Of a stretch of 18,744 bases of DNA, positions 2,240-18,744 are shown in pieces. The DNA comes from Kouleothrix aurantiaca. Lineage in GTDB: Bacteria; Chloroflexota; Chloroflexia; Chloroflexales; Roseiflexaceae. The position numbers and the translations under genes were made by a program. The notes below the pieces were generated by a model. That model was given only the letters and a program-made list of their open reading frames with translations, searched no databases and was not told the origin of the DNA. How positions within the stretch are numbered: the first letter of the stretch is position 1; each line of letters starts with the position of its first letter. The stretch spans positions 1 through 18,744 of the forward strand of contig LJCR01000014.1 of NCBI GenBank assembly GCA_001399705.1, in the 5' to 3' direction.

Positions 2240-2703
2240 GTCAGCCCGAGCTACGCCATCGGGGATGGCACGGGGGTATGCAGTGTGCACATAGCAACCC
2301 GGCCGCTGGACTGCGCACGTCACAGATCGGGAAGGGATACTGAAAGGTCGACCACGGGATCTGTACCAGCTCCCACGCGCGGGTGACAACCCACACTCGA
2401 CCAGGAATCGGACCGTATCGCGCCGCTCGACGAGCGTTAGGCTTTTCGCCAGCAACTCCTTGAGCGCGTCTGCCTCGAGTTGCACTCTGCCAGGAGCCGC
2501 TTGAGGCGGCCACTCTCCTTTGCGAGAGCCTTGAGACGCTGTGCCTCGGCCATGGTCATGCCTCCGAACTGCTTCTACCAATGGTAGAAGGTCGTCTCAC
2601 TGGTGCTGTGTGCCCAACAGCTCGCGCTGATCGACTGCTCGTCACGCTCGGCTTGCTCCAAGATCTTGATGATCTGCTCGGCCGAAAACTGGAGGTTTTT
2701 CAT
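2240..2703 (-). pseudogene. Decayed IS3-family element: orfA with stop and frameshift, start of orfB
   Basis: Reading the minus strand from ATG 2703-2701, after a GGGAGGA ribosome-binding site, gives the typical IS3 OrfA helix-turn-helix start (MKNLQFSAEQIIKILEQAER, then SETTFYHW). A TAG at 2577-2575 interrupts it where the family normally has Arg in YRWR. Past the stop it continues as KQFGGMTMAEAQRLKALAKE then RLKRLLAE, and a frameshift near 2490 moves the expected tail (LEADALKELLAKS) into another frame. That is followed by an OrfB-like start, VERRDTVRFLVE, with later pieces in a third frame (ELVQIPWSTFQY). No DDE catalytic core can be found, so the element is truncated. It is dead and now forms the upstream flank of the orphan rpoA. 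Confidence 0.8.
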
Positions 2704-2843
2704 GGCTGTCCTCCCGTTCCTGGGCTGACTCTACCGCATCAAACTGCTAGATTTCGGGAGTCATATCATCCACTGCAGCCTCGAGCATTCGGGCAGCTTT
2801 CAAGCGTCATCCAGATCCTGGACCGGGCACGCGGCGTGCTGCA

Positions 2844-2852
2844 TGGTATCAT
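2844..2852 (+). promoter_or_regulatory. Possible extended -10 promoter for the orphan rpoA
   Basis: TGGTATCAT is an extended -10 element (TGn + TATCAT) about 47 bases before ATG 2899. No good -35 lies 16-18 bases upstream, as extended -10 promoters allow. The site is centred in a small inverted repeat, GCATG-GTAT-CATGC (2841-2854). Weak evidence. Confidence 0.3.
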
Positions 2853-2898
2853 GCAAGTTCCACCATTCCTGCAGCACTCTGGACGGGAGAAGGAGCCT

Positions 2899-3873
2899 AT
2901 GACGATGCTTGACATAGTGCCGACGATCACGGTGGTGAGCGCCGGCGAACAATACGGCCGCTTTCAGATCGCGCCGCTGGAGGAAGGCCACGCCGCCGCG
3001 CTCGGGAACGCTCTCCGGCGGGTGCTGCTCTCGTCGATCCCGGGCGCCGCGGTCACCAAAATCAACATCGAGGGCGTGTACCACGAGTTTTCGACGATCC
3101 CTGGGGTCCGCGAGGACGTGCCCGAGCTGGTGCTGAACGTCAAAGGATTGCGGTTTCGGTGCTATGCCGAGCGGCCGGTGCGGGTCGCGCTGGTGCGCCA
3201 CGGGGCCGGCCCGGTCCGCGCCAGCGACATCGACACGCCATCGAATATCGAGGTGGTCAACCCCAACCACTACCTCTGCTCGCTCGACTCGGATGATGCC
3301 GAGCTGTCGATCGAGCTGACCATTGAGCGCGGGCGGGGCGCGCTGCTCGCCGACATGCGCGACGCGCCGCTGCCGATCGGCGAGATCGCGGTCGACGCGA
3401 TCTTCACGCCGATCCCCAAGGTGAATATGGTCGTTGAGCGCCTGGCATCCGCCGGCGAGCTGGCCGCACATGCGGCGGTGCTGCTCGAAATCTGGACCGA
3501 CGGCTCGCTCAAGCCAGGCGACGCCCTCTCCTACGCGGCGCAGCTCCTAGCCCAGTACGCGCAGGCGATCGCCAGCTTCGACCAGTCGGCGGTCGCGGTC
3601 AAGGAGCCGCACGCTCCAGGCGCGGCTATACCTGCGGAGATTTACGATTTGCCGATCGACATCCTGGATTTGACGACGCGCACCTACAACGCCTTGAAGC
3701 GCGCCGACATCACTAAGATCGGCCAGATCCTGGGAAAGGACGACAAGGCCTTGGCCAGCATTCGCAACTTCGGTGCGAAATCGGTCGAAGAGATCAAAGA
3801 CAAGCTGCGTGAACGCGGCTATGGCAACGTCGAGCAGACGCCTGAGCCGGGGCTGGAGCTGGCGGCAGGCTGA
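2899..3873 (+). CDS. rpoA: RNA polymerase alpha subunit (orphan copy)
   Basis: This is a 324-residue alpha subunit, close to the usual 310-330. The NTD dimerisation signature is plain (HAAALGNALRRVLLSSIPGA, then HEFSTIPGVREDV), followed by ERGRG and GEIAVDAIFTPIPKVN. The CTD helix-hairpin-helix region is also complete (LTTRTYNALKRADI, then IRNFGAKSVEEIKDKL), including the Arg that normally contacts UP-element DNA. ATG 2899 is chosen because the family's N-terminus begins just after it and GGGAGAAGGAG precedes it at a good distance; the frame stays open further upstream to 2581 only over relic DNA. Unusually, no ribosomal protein genes flank it: an IS3 relic lies upstream and a DUF192 lipoprotein downstream. 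Some conserved positions differ, for example VNMVVE where VNYRVE is usual. It may be a second, divergent alpha, or the sole copy relocated. Confidence 0.93.
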   Translation: MTMLDIVPTITVVSAGEQYGRFQIAPLEEGHAAALGNALRRVLLSSIPGAAVTKINIEGVYHEFSTIPGVREDVPELVLNVKGLRFRCYAERPVRVALVRHGAGPVRASDIDTPSNIEVVNPNHYLCSLDSDDAELSIELTIERGRGALLADMRDAPLPIGEIAVDAIFTPIPKVNMVVERLASAGELAAHAAVLLEIWTDGSLKPGDALSYAAQLLAQYAQAIASFDQSAVAVKEPHAPGAAIPAEIYDLPIDILDLTTRTYNALKRADITKIGQILGKDDKALASIRNFGAKSVEEIKDKLRERGYGNVEQTPEPGLELAAG

Positions 3874-5774: not shown

Positions 5775-6467
5775 ATGAGGATTCGACGATTTACTCTTTT
5801 GGCTATGCTTGTGGGCACGCTGCTGCTCAGCGCGTGCGGTGCCGCGCAGCAGGCTGCCTCACCAGGAGCAACTGCGGCTGCATCCGCCCCAGCTGCAACC
5901 ACAGCCCAGGCTGCACCGACCGCCGCAGGTACCACGATGGATCACGGTGGGATGATGGCGACGGCCGCACCAGCGGCGAGCGCGACGGGTGGGATGGATC
6001 ACGGTGCGATGCCAACGGGCGAGAGCAACGCGCCCTATGACGCACAGTTCATCGACAGCATGATTGAGCACCACCAGGGCGCGATCGATATGGCGAATCA
6101 GGCGCTCAAGGAAGCGAGCAGGCCAGAACTGAAGACGCTGGCACAGAATATCATCACTGCCCAGGAGGCAGAGATCAAGCAGATGCAGGACTGGCGCAAG
6201 GCCTGGTATCCTGATCTGGCAGCGACTGGCGGCATGGATATGGATATGGGCGATATGGAAGTGAGCGGCGACACGACCGTGCCGTTCGACCAGCGCTTCA
6301 TCACAGCGATGATCGCCCATCACGAGGGTGCGATCGCCATGGCGAAGGACGCCGGGCAGAAGGCCGAGCATAGCGAGATCAAGACTCTGGCCCAGGCTAT
6401 CATCACCGCCCAGGAGTCCGAAATCACGCAGATGCAGCAGTGGCAGAAGGAATGGTTCGGCCAGTAG
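5775..6467 (+). CDS. DUF305-domain lipoprotein with two DUF305 repeats
   Basis: The product is 230 residues. Residues 1-21 form a lipoprotein signal ending in the lipobox LLSAC (Cys21). An Ala/Thr/Pro-rich linker follows with two Met/His motifs, MDHGGMM and MDHGAM. Then come two tandem DUF305 domains (about 87-147 and 168-229), each with the family core: FIDSMIEHHQGAIDMA and FITAMIAHHEGAIAMA, then ITAQEAEIKQMQ and ITAQESEITQMQ. DUF305 proteins are ferritin-like four-helix proteins often encoded near copper resistance genes; the paired His and Met residues fit extracytoplasmic copper or silver binding (inference). ATG 5775 follows GAGGAGCTGAAGG. The stop is 27 bases before the next gene, so the two are probably co-transcribed. 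The MDHxxM motifs recur in the linker of the P-type ATPase at 12378. Confidence 0.93.
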   Translation: MRIRRFTLLAMLVGTLLLSACGAAQQAASPGATAAASAPAATTAQAAPTAAGTTMDHGGMMATAAPAASATGGMDHGAMPTGESNAPYDAQFIDSMIEHHQGAIDMANQALKEASRPELKTLAQNIITAQEAEIKQMQDWRKAWYPDLAATGGMDMDMGDMEVSGDTTVPFDQRFITAMIAHHEGAIAMAKDAGQKAEHSEIKTLAQAIITAQESEITQMQQWQKEWFGQ

Positions 6468-6494
6468 GCTGCCCGACTGCTGAGGAGGTAGAGT

Positions 6495-6884
6495 ATGCGG
6501 GTGTCACTCATATCCATTGGCCTGCTGGCGCCGCTCCTGACCGTCATGCTCACCCTGCTGAGCGCGTGCGGCGGCAGCCAGCCGGCCGCATCGCTTGAGA
6601 CAGTCGATGGGCCAGCGCTGATCTTCTTCTACACCGATAACTGAGCGCCGTGAGCGCAAACCGCGCCCATCGTGGATGGGCTGGAGCAGACCTACGGCGA
6701 TCGCCTGCGCTTCGTCCGCGTCGATTTCAACTCTTCCGACGGCCAGGCGCTGGCCCAACGCTACAGTGTGCGCGCCCACCCGACGATCGTCGTTATCGAC
6801 CGCACCGGCGTCGCGCGCACCACGGTCTTCGGCGTACCAAAGCGCGAGGAACTGGAGCAGGCAATCGGCACTGTGCTGACCTGA
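6495..6884 (+). CDS. Thioredoxin-fold lipoprotein, predicted selenoprotein with a UxxU active site
   Basis: Read through two in-frame TGA codons (6642-6644 and 6651-6653), this frame gives a complete 129-residue thioredoxin-like lipoprotein. It has a hydrophobic signal with lipobox LSAC (Cys25), then beta strand ALIFFYTDN, Sec50-Ala-Pro-Sec53, AQTAPIVDGLE, RFVRVDFNSS, the cis-Pro loop VRAHPT (Pro96) and a terminal helix EELEQAIGTVL. The two TGA codons sit exactly where thioredoxins carry CxxC; Sec53 to Pro58 equals Cys35 to Pro40 of E. coli thioredoxin. The residue before Sec50 is Asn, not the usual Trp. ATG 6495 follows GAGGAGGT. A conventional gene caller would end the gene at 6644 or restart it at GTG 6672, losing the active site. 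A perfect hairpin after the second TGA fits a SECIS element. The alternative, a pseudogene with two nonsense changes, would need both hits to fall on the catalytic positions alone. Role (inference): extracytoplasmic thiol/selenol reductase or peroxide/metal defence, expressed with DUF305. Confidence 0.8.
6654..6690 (+). promoter_or_regulatory. Candidate bacterial SECIS hairpin
   Basis: GCCCATC (6665-6671) and GATGGGC (6675-6681) form a perfect 7-bp stem with loop GUG (6672-6674). CC (6661-6662) and GG (6683-6684) can extend it past a small internal loop. The loop begins with G, as bacterial SECIS elements require, and lies 18 bases after the second TGA and 27 after the first; both distances fall in the roughly 16-37 base range described for bacterial SECIS. 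The hairpin lies inside the coding region, as expected for bacteria. Confidence 0.65.
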
Positions 6885-6889
6885 TCGCT

Positions 6890-6945
6890 TGAGATGCGTT
6901 CGCTCCAGGTGTACATAACGAACGCGCACCTGGAGCGTCTTCTCA
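6890..6945 (+). terminator. Long inverted repeat after the thioredoxin gene
   Basis: CGCTCCAGGTG (6901-6911) and CACCTGGAGCG (6927-6937) are perfect 11-base reverse complements, flanked by TGAGA (6890-6894) and TCTCA (6941-6945), which also pair. The T content after the stem is modest, so it is a terminator or an RNA-stabilising hairpin. An alternative pairing, GCGTTCG (6896-6902) with CGAACGC (6919-6925), competes with the main stem. Confidence 0.5.
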
Positions 6946-10174: not shown

Positions 10175-10523
10175 GTGCATATCGAGCGAATCAAAAAGAA
10201 ATATCAGCGCAACGCGCGCTTCTACGATCTCGTCGAGTGGCCGTTTCGCATCCTGCGTGCTGCGGCGATCGACGAGTTACAGCTTCGTCCAGGTCATGTC
10301 GTCCTGGACCTCGGTTGTGGTACCGGGCTGAGTTTCGCCTTACTTGAGGACGCGGTTGGCCCCAGCGGGCAGATCGTCGCGGTGGATGTGAGCCCGGACA
10401 TGTTGGCGCGGGCATTGGAGAAATGTATTCGTCACAGGTGGACCAACATCAGCCTGATCGAGGCGGATGCCGAAACGATGGGCTTGCAGGCAGACTCAGT
10501 CGATCGGGTGCTCTGCTTCTATA
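10175..10523 (+). pseudogene. SAM-dependent methyltransferase, 5' part, split by a TnpB element
   Basis: From GTG 10175 (GGAGAG upstream), the frame encodes a class I methyltransferase: HVVLDLGCGTGLSFALLE (SAM-binding glycine loop), IVAVDVSPDML and SLIEADAETM, then DRVLCFY, after which the TnpB element begins. Joining base 10523 to 11906 restores FYTHDIMTSP in frame and gives a complete 220-residue protein (663 bases including the stop), so the gene was intact before the insertion. As it stands the frame would end at 10549 with a 124-residue fragment lacking the C-terminal half. It resembles UbiE/phospholipid N-methyltransferase-type enzymes; the substrate is unknown. Confidence 0.9.
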
Positions 10524-10543
10524 GTATCCCTGCGTCTAGCGTT

Positions 10544-11800
10544 TTATGACACCAGGGCAGGATTCGTGCGCTGGCGCTGCCGATTGGGCAAGACCAGCGG
10601 CACAGGCTGTACTACCCAGCCTCGACCCCCTGGCCCAAAGGCGTCGGGGGCTGCTTTGCGACCAATGTTGTACGAACCGTTTACGTCGGCATTGATGAGC
10701 CGGCCATCGCTGGCCCGAAACAAGCCGCGCGCAATCCGCTTGCCGGCGTAGTGCGCGTGATGCTGGACCGGCTCATTATCCAGGAAGCTGACCTTGGAGG
10801 TGTGAGCCTCTTCATGCACGAGTACGCAGATACCGACGATCTCTGCCTTGTAGGTGAGCATCGCGATGAAGCGGGCGTGCGGGATAAACACGAAGGTCTG
10901 GTTGGTGCGCCGCCCCAATCTGACTCGCTGCTTCCAGTTTGGGTTGTGGCCGATGACAAGCGTGCCAATGCGGTGTTGCACCAGCAAATTGATGATGGCA
11001 CGGCTGGCATTGTGGAGGTAGTCAGTAATTCGGCGGTTGCGCTTGTCGGTGATGGCATCCAGCCGGCGGCTGGTATGGCGATTCTGTTGAAGGCGGGCCT
11101 GAAGCTGCGCGCGGCGCTTGTTGTAGAACTGGTTCAACGCCTTGAGCGGTCGCCCGTTAATCAACCGCGGCACAAAGCCGGGCAGACTTGCAGTTAGCGC
11201 CGCGAGGTTGTTGACCCCAATATCGATGGCTGCCACCAGCGCGGGATCGAGCGGAGCGGGGGTGATCGGTTGCTGATAGACGACCTCGATAGTGTAGTGA
11301 GTGCCGTGCGGGACAATCCGCACTTGCTGCACGGCGGTCTGCCGTGTTTGCACCTGGATGGGGAGGCCGGACGGTTGAATGATGCCCTGCCGCAGCAGTG
11401 GACGGCTGATGGCCTGGATGGTATAGGTCAGCACGTTGCGGCCTTGCTTACCGAGGTATTTGGGGAGCCGGGGGCGTCCCAGAAAGCGCGATGGGTCAGC
11501 CTTCCAGGCGGACACTGCCGCGAAGTAGCTCTCCCAGGCCACGCGGACTTGTTTGAGTACCCATTGGGCGACCTTCGCGGGCAAAGCGCGATACGGCTCG
11601 GTTTGGCGCATCTGGTGGGCCAGTGCTGGGTAGTGGATGCGTTCAGCGCGAAAGATATAGGCTTGACGCACCACGTAGTTGGCCGCATTGTAGAGATTCT
11701 TCGAGGCGAACGCGGCGGCGTCGATCGCGGCAAAGCGCGGATCGTGCCGATCAATACGATGGTGTTCGACAAGACGCATCGCGAGACTCGTATCAATCAT
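10544..11800 (-). CDS. tnpB: TnpB, RNA-guided endonuclease of an IS200/IS605-type element
   Basis: The product is 418 residues from ATG 11800. The N-terminal region has the OrfB pattern (ASKNLYNAANYVVRQAYIF, then YPALAHQM), and the C-terminal half has the RuvC nuclease sites: AIDIGVNNLAAL (Asp), VHEEAHTSKVSFLD (Glu) and NADVNGSYNIGRK (Asp). The usual CxxC...CxxC zinc finger between the last two sites is absent; the protein has only one Cys. TnpB cuts DNA guided by an RNA from the element's right end, which promotes retention of the element. ATG 11800 is preferred over the longer ATG 11869 because a strong promoter (10-base scores TTGCAC, 17 bases, TATACT) lies between them. All three catalytic residues remain, so it may be active. 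Confidence 0.9.
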   Translation of the reverse strand: MIDTSLAMRLVEHHRIDRHDPRFAAIDAAAFASKNLYNAANYVVRQAYIFRAERIHYPALAHQMRQTEPYRALPAKVAQWVLKQVRVAWESYFAAVSAWKADPSRFLGRPRLPKYLGKQGRNVLTYTIQAISRPLLRQGIIQPSGLPIQVQTRQTAVQQVRIVPHGTHYTIEVVYQQPITPAPLDPALVAAIDIGVNNLAALTASLPGFVPRLINGRPLKALNQFYNKRRAQLQARLQQNRHTSRRLDAITDKRNRRITDYLHNASRAIINLLVQHRIGTLVIGHNPNWKQRVRLGRRTNQTFVFIPHARFIAMLTYKAEIVGICVLVHEEAHTSKVSFLDNEPVQHHAHYAGKRIARGLFRASDGRLINADVNGSYNIGRKAAPDAFGPGGRGWVVQPVPLVLPNRQRQRTNPALVS

Positions 11801-11822
11801 AGAACGGGTGTTCTCACTTGGA

Positions 11823-11851
11823 AGTATAGCAGAAGGGGTAGATTTGTGCAA
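11823..11851 (-). promoter_or_regulatory. Sigma-70-type promoter of tnpB
   Basis: On the minus strand, TTGCAC (11851-11846) and TATACT (11828-11823) are separated by exactly 17 bases, close to consensus. The -10 lies 22 bases before ATG 11800, giving a short leader. Confidence 0.65.
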
Positions 11852-11905
11852 CAGAACGCCAGAAAACACGATACAACGCTAGAAGTTCAAGAAACGGTTT
11901 CTATA

Positions 11906-12219
11906 CGCACGATATCATGACCTCGCCGCGCGCAGTCGCGCAGGCAGTCCGAGCATTGCGGCCCGACGGACGGTTCGTGGCAGGTGGCGGGAAATGCGCA
12001 CGCGGACTGCGTGGGGTTGTGCTGAATCTGATCACGCTCCTCTACTCGCTGCCCTATATTACAAACCTTGCGGACACGACACGCCCCTGGACGTATCTGG
12101 AACAGCTGCTCGGGCCGCTCGTAGTGCAGGAATGGCTATGGGGCAGCGCGTATCTCGCGCACGGCGTCAAACACCCATCCAGCTTGCAGGAACTTGACAG
12201 GGCGTATGCGCAGCCATGA
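11906..12219 (+). pseudogene. SAM-dependent methyltransferase, 3' part
   Basis: This continues the methyltransferase fragment that ends at 10523. It reads HDIMTSPRAVAQAVRALRPD then GRFVAGGGKCARG, followed by a hydrophobic C-terminus (LNLITLLYSLPYITNL, then WTYLEQLLGPLVVQEW) and a stop at 12217-12219. The frame rejoins the 5' part exactly when the element is removed, and no further mutation is visible, so the insertion looks recent. ATG 11917 could start a fragment, but it would lack the SAM site. Confidence 0.88.
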
Positions 12220-12377: not shown

Positions 12378-15017
12378 ATGGCACATCCGACATCACACGC
12401 GGAACACCATGGAACCTTTAAACTGGATGATATCTACTGCACCGAGTGCGCTGAGGCGGTCGAGCAGGCGCTGCGCAGCCAGCCGCACGTTACCAGCGTT
12501 CACCTCGACTGGGCCAACAACGTGGTCCACGTCGGCTACCACGCTGGGATGATCAGCGCCGAGGAGATCGAGCGCGTGATCGCCAGCACCGGCTGCGTGT
12601 GCGCACCAGCCGATGGCGCGCACGATCACGCCGGCCACGCACAGCCTTCGGAGGCGCGCCGGCTCCAGCGATTGCAGCATGCCGTCGACGTCCAGCCCAT
12701 CACTATGGGCACAAAGCACGATCGCATGCAGTACGAGCAGCCTGCGACTGACGCAGATCCCTCGCGCTGGGCAACACGCGCTGCTCCGACTGCGCCGGCG
12801 ATGGACCATCGCGCGCACACGGACATGGATCACCCGATGCCGAAGGAACATCCGATGGCTGGCAAGGAAGCTGCTCAAACGGTCGATCACGCGGCGATGG
12901 GCCACGATATGCGGGCGATGGATCATGCTGCAATGGGCCACGAGATGGTTGGGATGGACCACGCCGCAATGGGGCACGATATGTCCGACCCCGGTATGGC
13001 CGCGGCGATGGAGCGCGACATGCGAAACAAGTTCTTCATCGCGCTGCTGCTGACCATCCCGACCGTGCTCTACGCCCCGCTTGGCATGAACCTGTTCGGC
13101 GTGCGCCTGCCCACCTTTGGCCTGGATATGAACCTGATCATGCTCATATTGACCACGCCGATCGTATTCTACTGCGGCTGGATGTTCATCGCTGGCGCCT
13201 ACCAGTCGCTGCGGCGCGGCATGCTCAACATGAGCGTGTTAATCGCGACCGGTGTGCTGGCGGCCTACGTCTTCAGCGTGCTGATCACCTTCATCGGCGG
13301 CGAGTCGTTCTTCGAGGCCGCGGCGATGCTGATCACGTTCGTGCTGTTCGGTCACTGGATGGAGATGCGCTCGCGACGTGGAACGAATGAGGCACTGCGC
13401 GCGCTCTTTGATCTCGTGCCGCCGCAGGCAACCGTGTTGCGCGACGGGCAGGAGCTCACCATCCCCAGCAGCGAGGTGCAGGTTGACGAGATCGTAGTAC
13501 TCAAGCCCGGCGATAAGGTGCCGGTCGATGGCGAGGTGACTGAGGGCGAGACCAGCATCGACGAGGCGCTGGTCACGGGCGAGAGCGTGCCGGTCACCAA
13601 GCGACCCGGCGATGGGGTGATCGCTGGTTCGATCAACCGCAGCGGCAGCGTGCGCTTCCGTGCGACCAAGGTTGGCGCCGATACCACGCTGGCGCAGATT
13701 GTCGACCTGGTGCAGCGCGCGCAGAACTCGAAAGCGCCAGGGCAGCGACTGGCCGACCGTGCCGCGCAGTATCTGGTCATCCTGGCGGTCGGGTCGGGTG
13801 TCATTACCTTTCTCGCCTGGTACTTCTTCGGCGGCGCGGCGCTCATCACTGCGCTGACCTTCGCAATTTCCGCCGTCGTGATCGCTTGCCCCGACGCGCT
13901 TGGCCTGGCGACGCCGACGGCAGTTGCCGTCGGGACGGGCGTCGGCGCCAAGTACAACATTCTGATCAAGGATGCTGCGACACTCGAGAACGTCTCGGGA
14001 GTTACTGCGATCGTGCTGGACAAGACCGGCACGCTGACTGAGGGCAAGCCCGCGCTGACCGACGTAGTGACGGTGGGAGGCACGTCCGAACAGGAACTGC
14101 TGCACCTGGTCGCGTCGGCCGAGCAGGGCTCGGAGCACCCGCTGGCCGAAGCGATTGTCGCGGGCGCGCGCCAACGTGGGGTTAGGGTGGTCGACGCCAC
14201 ACAGTTCGAGTCTATCGCCGGCCACGGCATTCGTGCGACGGTGGACGGCCGCACGGTGCTGGCGGGCAACGCCAAGCTGATGCGTGACCAGGGCGTTGAC
14301 GCGGCGGCACTGGAGGCGCAGGCGGCCACACTGGCCGAGCAGGGCAAAACCCCAATGTACGTGGCAATTGATGGGCGAGCAGCCGGGCTGGTGGCAGTGG
14401 CGGACACGATTAAGCCGAGCGCACGCGAGACCATTCGGCGGCTCAAGGAGCAGGCGATCGAGGCGGTGATGATCACCGGCGACAATGCCCGTACTGCTGC
14501 CGCAGTCGCCCGCGAGCTGGGCATCGAGCGATTCTTCGCCGAGGTGCTGCCGGCCGACAAGGCCCGCCACGTTAAGGAGCTCCAGGCCGAAGGTAAGCGC
14601 GTGGCGATGGTGGGCGACGGCGTCAATGACGCGCCGGCGCTGGCGCAGGCCGACATCGGCATTGCGATCGGCGCCGGTACCGACGTGGCGATCGAGACGG
14701 CCAATGTGGTATTGATGAAAAGCGACCCGCTCGACATCATCCGCGCGATCATCCTCTCGAAGGCGACGGTGCGCAAGATGAAGCAGAACCTGTTCTGGGC
14801 GGCGATCTACAACGTGTTGGCGATCCCGGTGGCCGCCGGCGTGCTCTACCCGTCGCTAGGGGTCGCGCTGCGGCCCGAATGGTCTGCCCTGTTGATGTCG
14901 CTGTCGTCGATCATCGTGGCGGTGAATGCCGTCCTGCTCAAGCGGGTCGAAGGTGATCTCGGCGAGCCGAGCGCAGGCCGCCCTGCTGCGCCGCTCCAGC
15001 CTGCGCCCGCCGCTTGA
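12378..15017 (+). CDS. Copper-type P1B ATPase with a CPD ion motif and Met/His-rich linker
   Basis: The product is 879 residues. Order: one heavy-metal-associated domain (about 12-76; YCTEC with Cys21 and Cys24); a Met/His-rich linker (about 80-215) with repeated MDHAAMGHDM-like units; then the P-type core with eight expected membrane helices. Motifs seen: LVTGESVPVTK (TGES 400-403), CPD at 504-506 in VIACPDALGLATP, DKTGT with phosphorylated Asp548, SEHPLAEAI, MITGDN, and GDGVNDAP (746-753). The last membrane helices contain YN and MSLSS, the copper(I) exporter signature. CPC is replaced by CPD, and in copB-type pumps by CPH, so the exact metal is open. GGGGGGAAAGAAG precedes ATG 12378. Likely role: ATP-driven export of Cu(I) or a related soft metal across the cytoplasmic membrane. 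It is longer than typical CopA because of the linker. Confidence 0.93.
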   Translation: MAHPTSHAEHHGTFKLDDIYCTECAEAVEQALRSQPHVTSVHLDWANNVVHVGYHAGMISAEEIERVIASTGCVCAPADGAHDHAGHAQPSEARRLQRLQHAVDVQPITMGTKHDRMQYEQPATDADPSRWATRAAPTAPAMDHRAHTDMDHPMPKEHPMAGKEAAQTVDHAAMGHDMRAMDHAAMGHEMVGMDHAAMGHDMSDPGMAAAMERDMRNKFFIALLLTIPTVLYAPLGMNLFGVRLPTFGLDMNLIMLILTTPIVFYCGWMFIAGAYQSLRRGMLNMSVLIATGVLAAYVFSVLITFIGGESFFEAAAMLITFVLFGHWMEMRSRRGTNEALRALFDLVPPQATVLRDGQELTIPSSEVQVDEIVVLKPGDKVPVDGEVTEGETSIDEALVTGESVPVTKRPGDGVIAGSINRSGSVRFRATKVGADTTLAQIVDLVQRAQNSKAPGQRLADRAAQYLVILAVGSGVITFLAWYFFGGAALITALTFAISAVVIACPDALGLATPTAVAVGTGVGAKYNILIKDAATLENVSGVTAIVLDKTGTLTEGKPALTDVVTVGGTSEQELLHLVASAEQGSEHPLAEAIVAGARQRGVRVVDATQFESIAGHGIRATVDGRTVLAGNAKLMRDQGVDAAALEAQAATLAEQGKTPMYVAIDGRAAGLVAVADTIKPSARETIRRLKEQAIEAVMITGDNARTAAAVARELGIERFFAEVLPADKARHVKELQAEGKRVAMVGDGVNDAPALAQADIGIAIGAGTDVAIETANVVLMKSDPLDIIRAIILSKATVRKMKQNLFWAAIYNVLAIPVAAGVLYPSLGVALRPEWSALLMSLSSIIVAVNAVLLKRVEGDLGEPSAGRPAAPLQPAPAA

Positions 15018-17823: not shown

Positions 17824-18644
17824 ATGATCGACCGCACGCTAACTGACTCGATCGTTGTGTACAGCACCGTCTGGTGCCCGGACTGCAAGCGCGCCAAGCG
17901 CTTCTTCGGCGAGCAGCGCGTGCCCTACGTCAATATTGATATCGAGCAGGACCCCGCAGCCATGGCATTTGTCCAGCAGATCAACCACGGCAAACGCATC
18001 ATCCCCACCATCGTCTTCCCAGACGGCTCCATCCTGGTCGAGCCGTCCAATGCCGAGCTGGCTGCGAAGCTGGGGTTGCAGACAAAGGCGCAGCGCAGCT
18101 TCTACGATGCCATTGTGATTGGCGGCGGCCCGGCCGGACTGACGGCGGCCTTGTACATGGCCCGCGAAGGGTTGGACACGCTTGTGATCGAGAAGGCCGG
18201 GCTCGGTGGGCAGGCCGGCATCACCCAGACGCTCGACAACTTCCCTGGCTTTGACGAGGGCATCTCCGGCACGGAGTTCGCCGAACGGCTAGGACGCCAG
18301 GCGCGACGCTTCGGCGTCGAGATCCTGCAGGCGCAGACCGTGACAAACATTGGGCGCGAGGGGCCGTACCTGAGCATCACGACTGGTGATGGCTCGAGCT
18401 ATGGCACCAAAGCCGGGCTGCTGGCGACCGGCGCACGCTATCGCACACTGGGTGTGCCAGGCGAAGAAGAGCTGATCGGCATCAACATCCACTTCTGCGC
18501 GACCTGTGACGGTGCATTCTACAAAGGTAAGAAAGTGCTCGTCGTCGGTGGGGGCAACAGCGGGCTCGAAGAAGGATTGTTTCTGACGAAGTTCGCGAAC
18601 CAGGTGGACATCGTAGAGTTCCAGCCGCACCTGAAGGCCTATAG
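17824..18644 (+). pseudogene. Glutaredoxin-thioredoxin reductase fusion, truncated by an IS3-family element
   Basis: The N-terminal 85 residues are a glutaredoxin-like domain (YSTVWCPDCKRAKRFF, Cys18 and Cys21; then RIIPTIVFPDGS). From about residue 92 a thioredoxin reductase follows: FAD motif GGGPAG (100-105), the redox pair CATC (225-228) and NADPH motif GGGNSG (242-247). Such a fusion would pass electrons from NADPH via FAD and CATC to its own glutaredoxin domain or to thioredoxins. Host coding stops at about residue 273 (EFQPHLKAY), where the IS begins; the frame then reads 14 foreign residues to TAG 18685. About 100 residues, including the rest of the NADPH domain and the C-terminal FAD part, are missing. 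ATG 17824 follows AAGGAG and a strong promoter. The truncated product is probably inactive. Confidence 0.88.
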
Positions 18645-18744
18645 TGGACCCAGAAATCTGTACAGTCAGACGGTCAGACTTCTGTAGAATAACAGTATGA
18701 AAAAGTCTTACACTGCCAGCTTCAAAGCCCAGGTCGTCCTAGAG
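18645..18744 (+). mobile_element. IS3-family element, left end (runs off the window)
   Basis: The homology of the reductase ends abruptly at TGGACCCAGAAATCTG, which begins with the TG typical of IS3-family ends. Two direct copies of GTCAGAC (18665-18671 and 18673-18679) lie within the end. An OrfA-like frame starts at 18697. The other end and the target duplication are outside the window. Confidence 0.8.
18697..18744 (+). CDS. IS3-family transposase OrfA, N-terminus only
   Basis: ATG 18697 opens MKKSYTASFKAQVVLE, the standard beginning of an IS3-family OrfA helix-turn-helix protein, cut by the window edge after 16 residues. It is distinct from the decayed copy at 2240-2703 (MKNLQFSAEQIIKIL), so two different IS3-type elements have visited this region. 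Confidence 0.8.
   Translation, partial: MKKSYTASFKAQVVLE

What the first reader, a model, noticed from the sequence alone, without database searches (positions are those of the whole stretch)
6495..6884. Thioredoxin lipoprotein with two in-frame TGA codons at the CxxC positions: a predicted UxxU selenoprotein
Seen: one frame from ATG 6495 to TGA 6884 interrupted only by TGA at 6642 and 6651, with full thioredoxin features on both sides (signal and lipobox, FFYTDN strand, Pro58, cis-Pro96, final helix). The two TGAs are spaced exactly as the CxxC cysteines. Known: selenocysteine commonly replaces catalytic Cys in thioredoxin-fold proteins, usually singly; UxxU is rare. Inference: a secreted, lipid-anchored di-selenol or selenenyl-selenide thioredoxin in a metal-stress locus. 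Standard annotation would miss it or call a 70-residue fragment.
Basis: partly seen in the sequence, partly recalled or inferred. Interest (0 to 1): 0.95.

Follow-up and report, generated by a model that had tools for sequence, protein, structure and literature searches.

The report
Thioredoxin with two predicted selenocysteines
This bacterial gene has two in-frame UGA codons exactly where thioredoxins carry their two catalytic cysteines, followed by a hairpin-forming sequence conserved in its relatives, so both codons are likely read as selenocysteine, giving a predicted membrane-anchored two-selenium thioredoxin; the only two protein-database matches found are tail fragments.

Summary
ATG 6495 to TGA 6884 is open except for TGA at 6642 and 6651, at the thioredoxin CxxC positions. 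It is not a damaged gene: 13 further Chloroflexota loci carry the same TGA pair and no other stop in the matched stretch (a second copy in the same MAG, 7 other genomes of the class, 4 more of the phylum, one named Anaerolineae MAG). A hairpin at a fixed place (window 6666-6680, loop GUG) has all five core pairs in 13 of 14 UxxU and 22 of 22 UxxC rows, but in 2 of 22 CxxC rows; four of the five show compensatory changes. The loop begins 27 nt after the first UGA and 18 nt after the second, both inside the published 16-37 nt range, so one SECIS could serve both. SelB is over cut-off in 10 of 12 UxxU genomes searched; the window's own fragmented MAG yields only a SelB C-terminal piece, no SelA, no tRNA-Sec. 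A search of 5.8 billion proteins gave two matches, both tails starting at the residue that the loop GTG encodes. Best reading: an exported lipoprotein thioredoxin with a UxxU site, predicted diselenide, possibly tied to copper handling. New variant of a known kind.

The parts
6495..6884 (+). UxxU thioredoxin lipoprotein gene, 129 residues with both internal TGAs read as an amino acid, stop TGA included in the coordinates
   Evidence: 13 homologous loci with the same two TGAs
6483..6489 (+). AGGAGGT, predicted ribosome-binding site, 5 nt before the ATG
   Evidence: sequence
6558..6569 (+). lipobox L-S-A-C (residues 22-25), predicted lipid attachment at Cys25
   Evidence: strict lipobox pattern in 10 of 14 UxxU N-termini, a looser PS51257-like pattern in 13 of 14 (patterns recalled; starts chosen by me)
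6642..6644 (+). first UGA, predicted Sec50, at the nucleophilic Cys position of CxxC
   Evidence: TGA at this column defines the 36 U-form rows
6651..6653 (+). second UGA, predicted Sec53, at the resolving Cys position
   Evidence: TGA in 14 and a Cys codon in 22 of the 36 U-form rows; in one genus G082 has TGA and G083 TGC here
6665..6681 (+). predicted bacterial SECIS hairpin GCCCATC-GTG-GATGGGC; core 6666-6680, loop 6672-6674; loop starts 27 nt after UGA1 and 18 nt after UGA2
6672..6884 (+). 70-aa ORF from the GTG in the hairpin loop; the two database proteins found are of this type
6777..6782 (+). His95 and cis-Pro96, expected to face the active site (His in 14 of 14, Pro in 13 of 14 rows of A1)
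   Evidence: that this Pro is cis follows from the thioredoxin family (recalled)
5775..6467 (+). DUF305 gene with a lipobox-like N-terminus 27 nt upstream, likely co-transcribed
   Evidence: lipobox by eye

Best explanation
The gene at 6495-6884 has two in-frame UGA codons in place of the two catalytic cysteine codons of a thioredoxin, followed by one conserved hairpin-forming sequence, and it is predicted to be translated with selenocysteine at both, giving a likely exported, lipid-anchored UxxU thioredoxin. Predicted mechanism of decoding: one SECIS hairpin (loop 27 nt after UGA1 and 18 nt after UGA2) would recruit SelB with Sec-tRNA twice in succession while the ribosome moves nine bases. 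Predicted mechanism of action: Sec50 would attack disulfides or oxidised thiols on the outer face of the membrane and Sec53 would resolve the intermediate, leaving a diselenide that a dedicated donor must reduce; its natural targets may be copper-handling or other exported thiol proteins. Shown here: the codons, their conservation, the hairpin sequence and its compensatory changes, purifying selection beyond the stops, thioredoxin homology, Sec machinery in most carriers searched. Inferred: insertion of Sec at both sites, lipid anchoring, the diselenide, the substrate.
For: Thirteen further loci with TGA at both columns and no other stop inside the match. Hairpin: five core pairs complete in 13 of 14 UxxU, 22 of 22 UxxC, 2 of 22 CxxC rows; loop CGT in 14 of 14, 21 of 22, 4 of 22. 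Covariation over the 36 U-form rows: 91.2% of cells paired, 21 cells with both sides changed, covariation score 0.308, each reached in 0 of 500 shuffles; slid versions pair 31-59%; the 22 CxxC rows pair 50.8%. RNAalifold returns the same 5-bp stem on its own, 4 of 5 pairs compensated. bSECIS rules (PMC13188914, section 5 read): met for both UGAs in the window. Synonymous divergence lowered from UGA1 through the hairpin in 6 of 7 pairs, dN/dS 0.12-0.22 after it in six of seven. SelB over cut-off in 10 of 12 UxxU genomes, SelA over cut-off in 7 of the 8 tested, tRNA-Sec at 56.7-74.3 bits in 9 of 12. Own genome: SelB C-terminal fragment, 55% identical to G029 SelB over residues 514-609. Same-genus genome G063: tRNA-Sec at 69.5 bits, anticodon UCA read by eye. 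In family f35, orthologues are CGSC in G462 and G191, which lack SelB over cut-off, and UGSC in G442, which has it.
Against: No SelA and no tRNA-Sec in the window's own MAG (one search had no positive control). G071 has SelA but no SelB over cut-off and no tRNA-Sec; G073 has no tRNA-Sec; among 10 UxxC carriers searched for SelB, G080 and G386 have none over cut-off. Some Sec users hold Cys forms (G171, G222, G292); further pair types are no more than in shuffles (313 of 500 as high), pairs with a two-sided change 7 of 500, the sixth pair (closing the 3-nt loop) is unpaired in 18 of 36; related rows can exceed such shuffles without structure, and the CxxC rows also show two-sided changes (10 of 500 shuffles as high). 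Synonymous shuffles of single sequences give p 0.010-0.53 over 22 U-form rows, because the peptide P-[IV]-V-[DN]-G itself favours the stem; in 1 of the 22 (G073) the minimum-energy fold is another one, and 3 of the 22 miss the -7.5 kcal/mol limit. Two CxxC rows (G292, G388) keep all five core pairs and one UxxU row (G424) breaks one. The bin has 7.5% contamination, so the second copy on C569 may come from another organism; that copy has Leu at the cis-Pro position. Nothing here measures selenium, and decoding of the second UGA rests on position and conservation alone.
Confidence: 0.9

Rival explanations
1. Only the first UGA is decoded as Sec; the second acts mostly as a stop, so the main product is a truncated lipopeptide and full-length UxxU protein is rare or regulatory.
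For: 22 of 36 U-form rows have TGA only at the first position; one hairpin must serve two codons; few families with two Sec are in the catalogue.
Against: 14 loci keep TGA at the second column, a 13-row group plus G082; sequence after it is under purifying selection; the second UGA lies 18 nt from the loop, inside the 16-37 nt range.
Confidence: 0.06
2. UGA is read as another amino acid (Cys by a suppressor tRNA, or Trp by a changed code), not as Sec.
For: SelA and tRNA-Sec were not found in the window's MAG; Cys stands at these sites in relatives.
Against: The gene and several homologues end in TGA; the SECIS-like hairpin goes with the UGA; Sec machinery is present in most carriers searched; Trp at both CxxC sites would be expected to abolish the active site (inference).
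Confidence: 0.03
3. Pseudogene or assembly error.
For: Draft MAG of 3843 contigs with 7.5% contamination.
Against: Same two TGAs in 13 other loci, 12 of them from other assemblies, no other stops inside the matches, dN/dS well below 1.
Confidence: 0.01

Closest known systems
Bacterial Sec-thioredoxin (PF00085, UxxC; PMC13188914 Table 1, read)
   Same: Same Pfam family, Sec at the first catalytic position
   Different: One Sec in the table, two TGAs here; here with a lipobox
Prx-like thiol:disulfide oxidoreductase (PF00578, UxxC or UxxU; same table)
   Same: Bacterial thioredoxin-like family with UxxU recorded
   Different: AhpC/TSA domain; PF00578 does not match the window protein at E 0.001, only 1 of 14 A1 rows
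Prx-like 2 UxxU sequences of the GOS survey (PMC2398784, passages read)
   Same: UxxU redox motif in marine microbial reads
   Different: Described there as of low similarity to SelP N-terminal region PF04592, not PF00085
Selenoprotein L (SelL) of aquatic animals (title via reference lists; paper not held; fold and SECIS place recalled)
   Same: Two Sec, a diselenide in a redox motif named in the title
   Different: Eukaryotic, SECIS in the 3' UTR, Prx-like fold (recalled); here bacterial, SECIS-like hairpin inside the coding frame
NF041115 metal-binding protein/putative mercuric reductase, UxxU (PMC13188914 Table 1)
   Same: UxxU, metal link
   Different: Different family; no NF041115 match among the 17 families (E up to 0.1)

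Membership tests
Bacterial selenoprotein gene (bSECIS model, PMC13188914 Fig. 2 legend) | 3-9 nt apical loop on a 4-16 bp upper stem | tested here: met
   7-bp stem with 3-nt loop in the window; five core pairs in 35 of 36 U-form rows
Bacterial selenoprotein gene (bSECIS model, PMC13188914 Fig. 2 legend) | G in the first two loop positions | tested here: met
   loop GTG, or CGTGA-type when the closing pair is open
Bacterial selenoprotein gene (bSECIS model, PMC13188914 Fig. 2 legend) | 16-37 nt between Sec-UGA and loop | tested here: met
   27 nt for UGA1, 18 nt for UGA2
Bacterial selenoprotein gene (bSECIS model, PMC13188914 Fig. 2 legend) | MFE <= -7.5 kcal/mol | tested here: met
   -15.8 for the 45 nt after UGA2 in the window; 3 of 22 U-form rows folded are weaker, -6.9 to -7.3
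Bacterial selenoprotein gene | SelA, SelB, tRNA-Sec in the organism | tested here: inconclusive
   own MAG: SelB C-terminal fragment only, no SelA, no tRNA-Sec; same-genus G063 has tRNA-Sec
Bacterial selenoprotein gene | selenium in the protein | not testable with these tools
   needs 75Se or mass spectrometry
Thioredoxin family PF00085 | match over Pfam gathering score | tested here: met
   45.9 bits against 23.5; 14 of 14 A1 rows match at E 0.001
Housekeeping thioredoxin (TIGR01068 equivalog) | score over the curated cut-off | tested here: not met
   52.6 bits against 96.8
Catalogued Sec-thioredoxin (UxxC) | single Sec, Cys at the second position | tested here: not met
   TGA at both positions
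Prx-like UxxU family PF00578 | AhpC/TSA domain | tested here: not met
   no match at E 0.001
Selenoprotein L | sequence kinship with SelL | not tested
   SelL sequence not fetched; comparison rests on recall and reference titles
Bacterial lipoprotein | lipobox after an N-terminal hydrophobic stretch | tested here: met
   LSAC; strict pattern in 10 of 14, loose in 13 of 14 UxxU rows; attachment itself not testable here

The most novel reading that the evidence does not exclude
A single in-frame bacterial SECIS hairpin drives two consecutive selenocysteine insertions nine bases apart, producing a natural diselenide thioredoxin on the outer face of Chloroflexota membranes that serves copper-handling proteins; the second Sec has been gained or lost at least twice (G082 UAPU against G083 UIPC in one genus) with the hairpin kept, because that hairpin already lies in range of both codons.
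Probability: 0.55. Interest if true: 0.8.

Novelty: new variant of a known kind. Interest (0 to 1): 0.66.

Why it matters
The catalogue read here lists PF00085 thioredoxin with one Sec; a two-Sec version spread over Chloroflexota that annotation hides would add a family of predicted diselenide enzymes. The UxxU/UxxC/CxxC series with one conserved hairpin makes a sharp question testable: can one bacterial SECIS serve two UGAs, and how far may the codon sit from it? A diselenide in a Grx-type peptide has a much lower potential (-381 mV) than the disulfide (-180 mV) (Besse et al. as cited in PMC10096412, passage read), so such a protein could be an unusually strong reductant, or one resistant to overoxidation, in an oxidising compartment (inference). 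It also suggests how gene callers turn a SECIS loop GTG into a false start.

Tried and rejected
Recoding as Cys or Trp, pseudogene and single-UGA decoding were weighed as rivals. C802:4713-5624, the top SelB hit in the own genome, was rejected: the contig reads rpsL-rpsG-fusA-tuf and the hit is EF-Tu (gene names by eye). The three tRNA-Sec hits in the own genome (34.4-35.9 bits) are tRNA-Leu, -Lys and -Tyr by ARAGORN. tRNA-Sec scores of 47-52 bits were not counted as Sec evidence, because control genomes that I recall as lacking Sec also pass the cut-off; the best hits of G462, G191 and G388 fall there. G215 shows '2 TGA' but its second TGA lies at the 3' end of the match; it was counted as UxxC. 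In one search minus-strand loci were read on the wrong strand; one search replaces it. Rfam found nothing in the window at gathering scores. The promoter/terminator scan found nothing.

Counts: one search uses 58 rows (14 UxxU, 22 UxxC, 22 CxxC). Dropped before the count: L105, L106, L107 and L123 (the same genes as rows already in) and L124 (G377, one TGA and one TAG), not examined. Matches listed without a fetched locus were not examined, and both lists were cut ('more matches are not listed'), so UxxU totals are lower bounds. SelA was not tested in G452, G424, G493 or G369. The SKYG78 genome was not searched for Sec machinery. One search returned 2 proteins among 31 candidates; it needs shared 5-residue words and looks only at proteins of 0.55-1.75 times the query's length. 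Neighbours were picked by eye, one to four per locus in most cases and more where copper-type genes were already suspected; G079 and most of C569 were read by eye only, so the copper count is not a fair sample.

Literature: nine searches; in their listings and in the passages I read I saw no report of a UxxU PF00085 thioredoxin or of this Chloroflexota family. Supplementary files and subscription papers were not searchable. PMC13188914: section 5 and parts 1-2 of 3 of section 7 read, other passages by find. PMC9312934, PMC2398784, PMC7539508, PMC10096412, PMC3473315 and PMC1794560: passages only. Other papers: search listings only.

Full report
What is there. The frame from ATG 6495 to TGA 6884 is interrupted only by TGA at 6642 and 6651. 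It starts 27 nt after a DUF305 gene (5775-6467) with AGGAGGT in front of it. With TGA read as an amino acid the product has 129 residues: hydrophobic N-terminus, lipobox LSAC, then a thioredoxin domain (PF00085, 45.9 bits, cut-off 23.5). An AF2 model from alignment A1 (9 UxxU and 5 UxxC rows) has block pLDDT 96-98 over that domain, and Foldseek's best matches are thioredoxins. The two TGAs fall on the two CxxC columns.

It is a family, not an accident. The own genome (G000, a MAG of 7.8 Mb in 3843 contigs, 83.5% complete, 7.5% contamination) has a second copy at C569:4211-4567, 67% identical, with the same two TGAs. Among 158 genomes of the class, UxxU loci were found in 8 (G000 twice, G004, G029, G071, G073, G077, G079, G082). 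Among 400 genomes drawn from the phylum, 4 more genomes have it (G369, G424, G452, G493). One named record, Anaerolineae MAG SKYG78 (JANWYT010000017.1), has it too. That makes 14 loci, each with the two TGAs and no other stop inside the match. The totals are lower bounds because the match lists were cut and only fetched loci were read. UxxC relatives are also common: 22 rows examined.

The hairpin. An ungapped alignment of 36 U-form loci shows a CCYRTCGTNRAYRGG-like stretch at a fixed place. All five core pairs form in 13 of 14 UxxU and 22 of 22 UxxC rows, against 2 of 22 CxxC rows. On the U-forms 91.2% of cells pair and 21 cells have both sides changed, each reached in 0 of 500 shuffles; sliding the partners gives 31-59%. 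On the CxxC rows 50.8% pair. RNAalifold unprompted returns the same five pairs, four of them compensated. The loop starts 27 nt after UGA1 and 18 nt after UGA2; the published bacterial range is 16-37 nt (PMC13188914 section 5). So one hairpin satisfies the rule for both codons. Synonymous change is lower in the 14 codons from UGA1 than before and after them in 6 of 7 pairs, the closest pair G071/G079 being the exception, and dN/dS after them is 0.12-0.22 in the six of seven pairs where it could be computed.

Against the hairpin. Synonymous shuffles of single sequences give p from 0.010 to 0.53 over 22 U-form rows, since the peptide itself favours the stem; in G073 the minimum-energy fold is a different one, and 3 of the 22 rows miss the -7.5 kcal/mol limit. 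Two of the five shuffle measures are weak: further pair types (313 of 500 as high) and pairs with a two-sided change (7 of 500). The sixth pair is open in 18 of 36 rows. Two CxxC rows keep the stem and one UxxU row breaks a pair. The case rests on the comparison across loci.

Machinery. SelB is over its cut-off in 10 of 12 UxxU genomes (not G000, G071) and in 8 of 10 UxxC genomes searched (not G080, G386). SelA is over cut-off in 7 of the 8 UxxU genomes tested (not G000). tRNA-Sec at 56.7-74.3 bits is in 9 of 12 UxxU genomes (not G000, G071, G073). In G000 the only piece is a SelB C-terminus at C3476:1-321, 45% identical to the G073 SelB end and 55% to G029 residues 514-609. The same-genus genome G063 has tRNA-Sec at 69.5 bits with a UCA anticodon read by eye. 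In family f35, G442 has UGSC and SelB, while the orthologues of G462 and G191 have CGSC, no SelB over cut-off and 3 and 2 of 6 stem pairs: this fits Sec-to-Cys exchange with loss of the system. The rule is not strict: G171, G222 and G292 have SelB over cut-off and hold CxxC forms.

Origin of the second Sec. In a tree of 58 rows (94 columns, many forks unresolved) the label UxxU needs two changes: 13 rows group together (85/88, weak) and G082 (UAPU) pairs with its same-genus relative G083 (UIPC) at 100/98. The second position therefore switches between UGA and a Cys codon while the hairpin stays.

What annotation does to it. In a search of 5.8 billion proteins with the read-through product, 2 of 31 candidates passed E 0.001; they are 85 and 77 aa long and both begin V-D-G-L-E-Q-T-Y-G, i.e. 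at the residue encoded here by the GTG in the hairpin loop.

How it may work. Export and lipid attachment are predicted from the lipobox. The active site would form a diselenide on oxidation; in a Grx-type peptide that bond has E0 -381 mV against -180 mV for the disulfide (PMC10096412 passage). A reductase role in an oxidising compartment, or protection against overoxidation, follows by inference. Context hints at copper: DUF305 next to the gene here and, in another family, in G082; a heavy-metal P-ATPase 5.5 kb downstream here and another about 0.4 kb upstream in G452 (copper inferred from His/Met-rich stretches); multicopper oxidase and DUF411 in G029; a cupredoxin in G493. That is 5 of 14 loci. 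The neighbours scanned at the other loci (G004, one gene in C569, G071, G077, G073, G369, G424, SKYG78) show none; G079 was read by eye only. Neighbours were picked by eye and unevenly, and no background rate was measured. In G493 the gene directly upstream is a membrane-anchored TlpA-like protein that itself has an in-frame TGA at UQPC, a possible electron donor or partner.

Comparison with the known. The 2026 catalogue (PMC13188914, Table 1 read) lists PF00085 thioredoxin only as UxxC with one Sec; UxxU is listed for PF00578 Prx-like proteins, NF041115 and FmdB. GOS reads contain UxxU Prx-like 2 sequences (PMC2398784). Animal SelL is the functional analogue (paper not held; recalled). I saw no PF00085 protein with UxxU, a lipobox and one SECIS for two UGAs in the searches listed under Tried and rejected. 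I file it as a new variant of a known kind.

Noticed in passing
L151:1-1124 (G493:C175), minus strand: Two adjacent predicted selenoprotein genes: a membrane-anchored TlpA-like protein with in-frame TGA (UQPC) directly upstream of the UxxU gene, and a cupredoxin gene (1216-1593) before both.
   Followed up: partly
G006 (single contig, 99% complete): tRNA-Sec at 70.9 bits but no SelA match: possibly a recently decayed Sec system or another Sec synthase.
   Followed up: no
L005:1501-1857 (second copy on C569): The cis-Pro position reads Leu (GHLTIV) in the second UxxU copy; unclear whether real or a base error.
   Followed up: no
window 17824-18687: Glutaredoxin-thioredoxin reductase fusion whose frame stops shortly before the contig end; possible donor for the UxxU protein, 11 kb away.
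   Followed up: partly
window 10175-12219: A transposase-like TnpB/OrfB ORF (10544-11869, minus strand; by eye) seems to sit inside a methyltransferase gene whose two ends lie at 10175-10549 and 11917-12219.
   Followed up: no
window 12378-15017: Heavy-metal P-type ATPase with CPD (VIACPDALGLATP) where CPC is usual (recalled), and His/Met-rich repeats after its HMA domain.
   Followed up: no
window 2581-3873: ORF whose later part reads like RNA polymerase alpha (by eye), beside a DUF192 gene and with no ribosomal protein gene noticed next to it.
   Followed up: no
window 6901-6937: 11-bp inverted repeat with a 15-nt loop just after the gene's stop, terminator-like but without a T run (one search lists no terminator).
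   Followed up: partly
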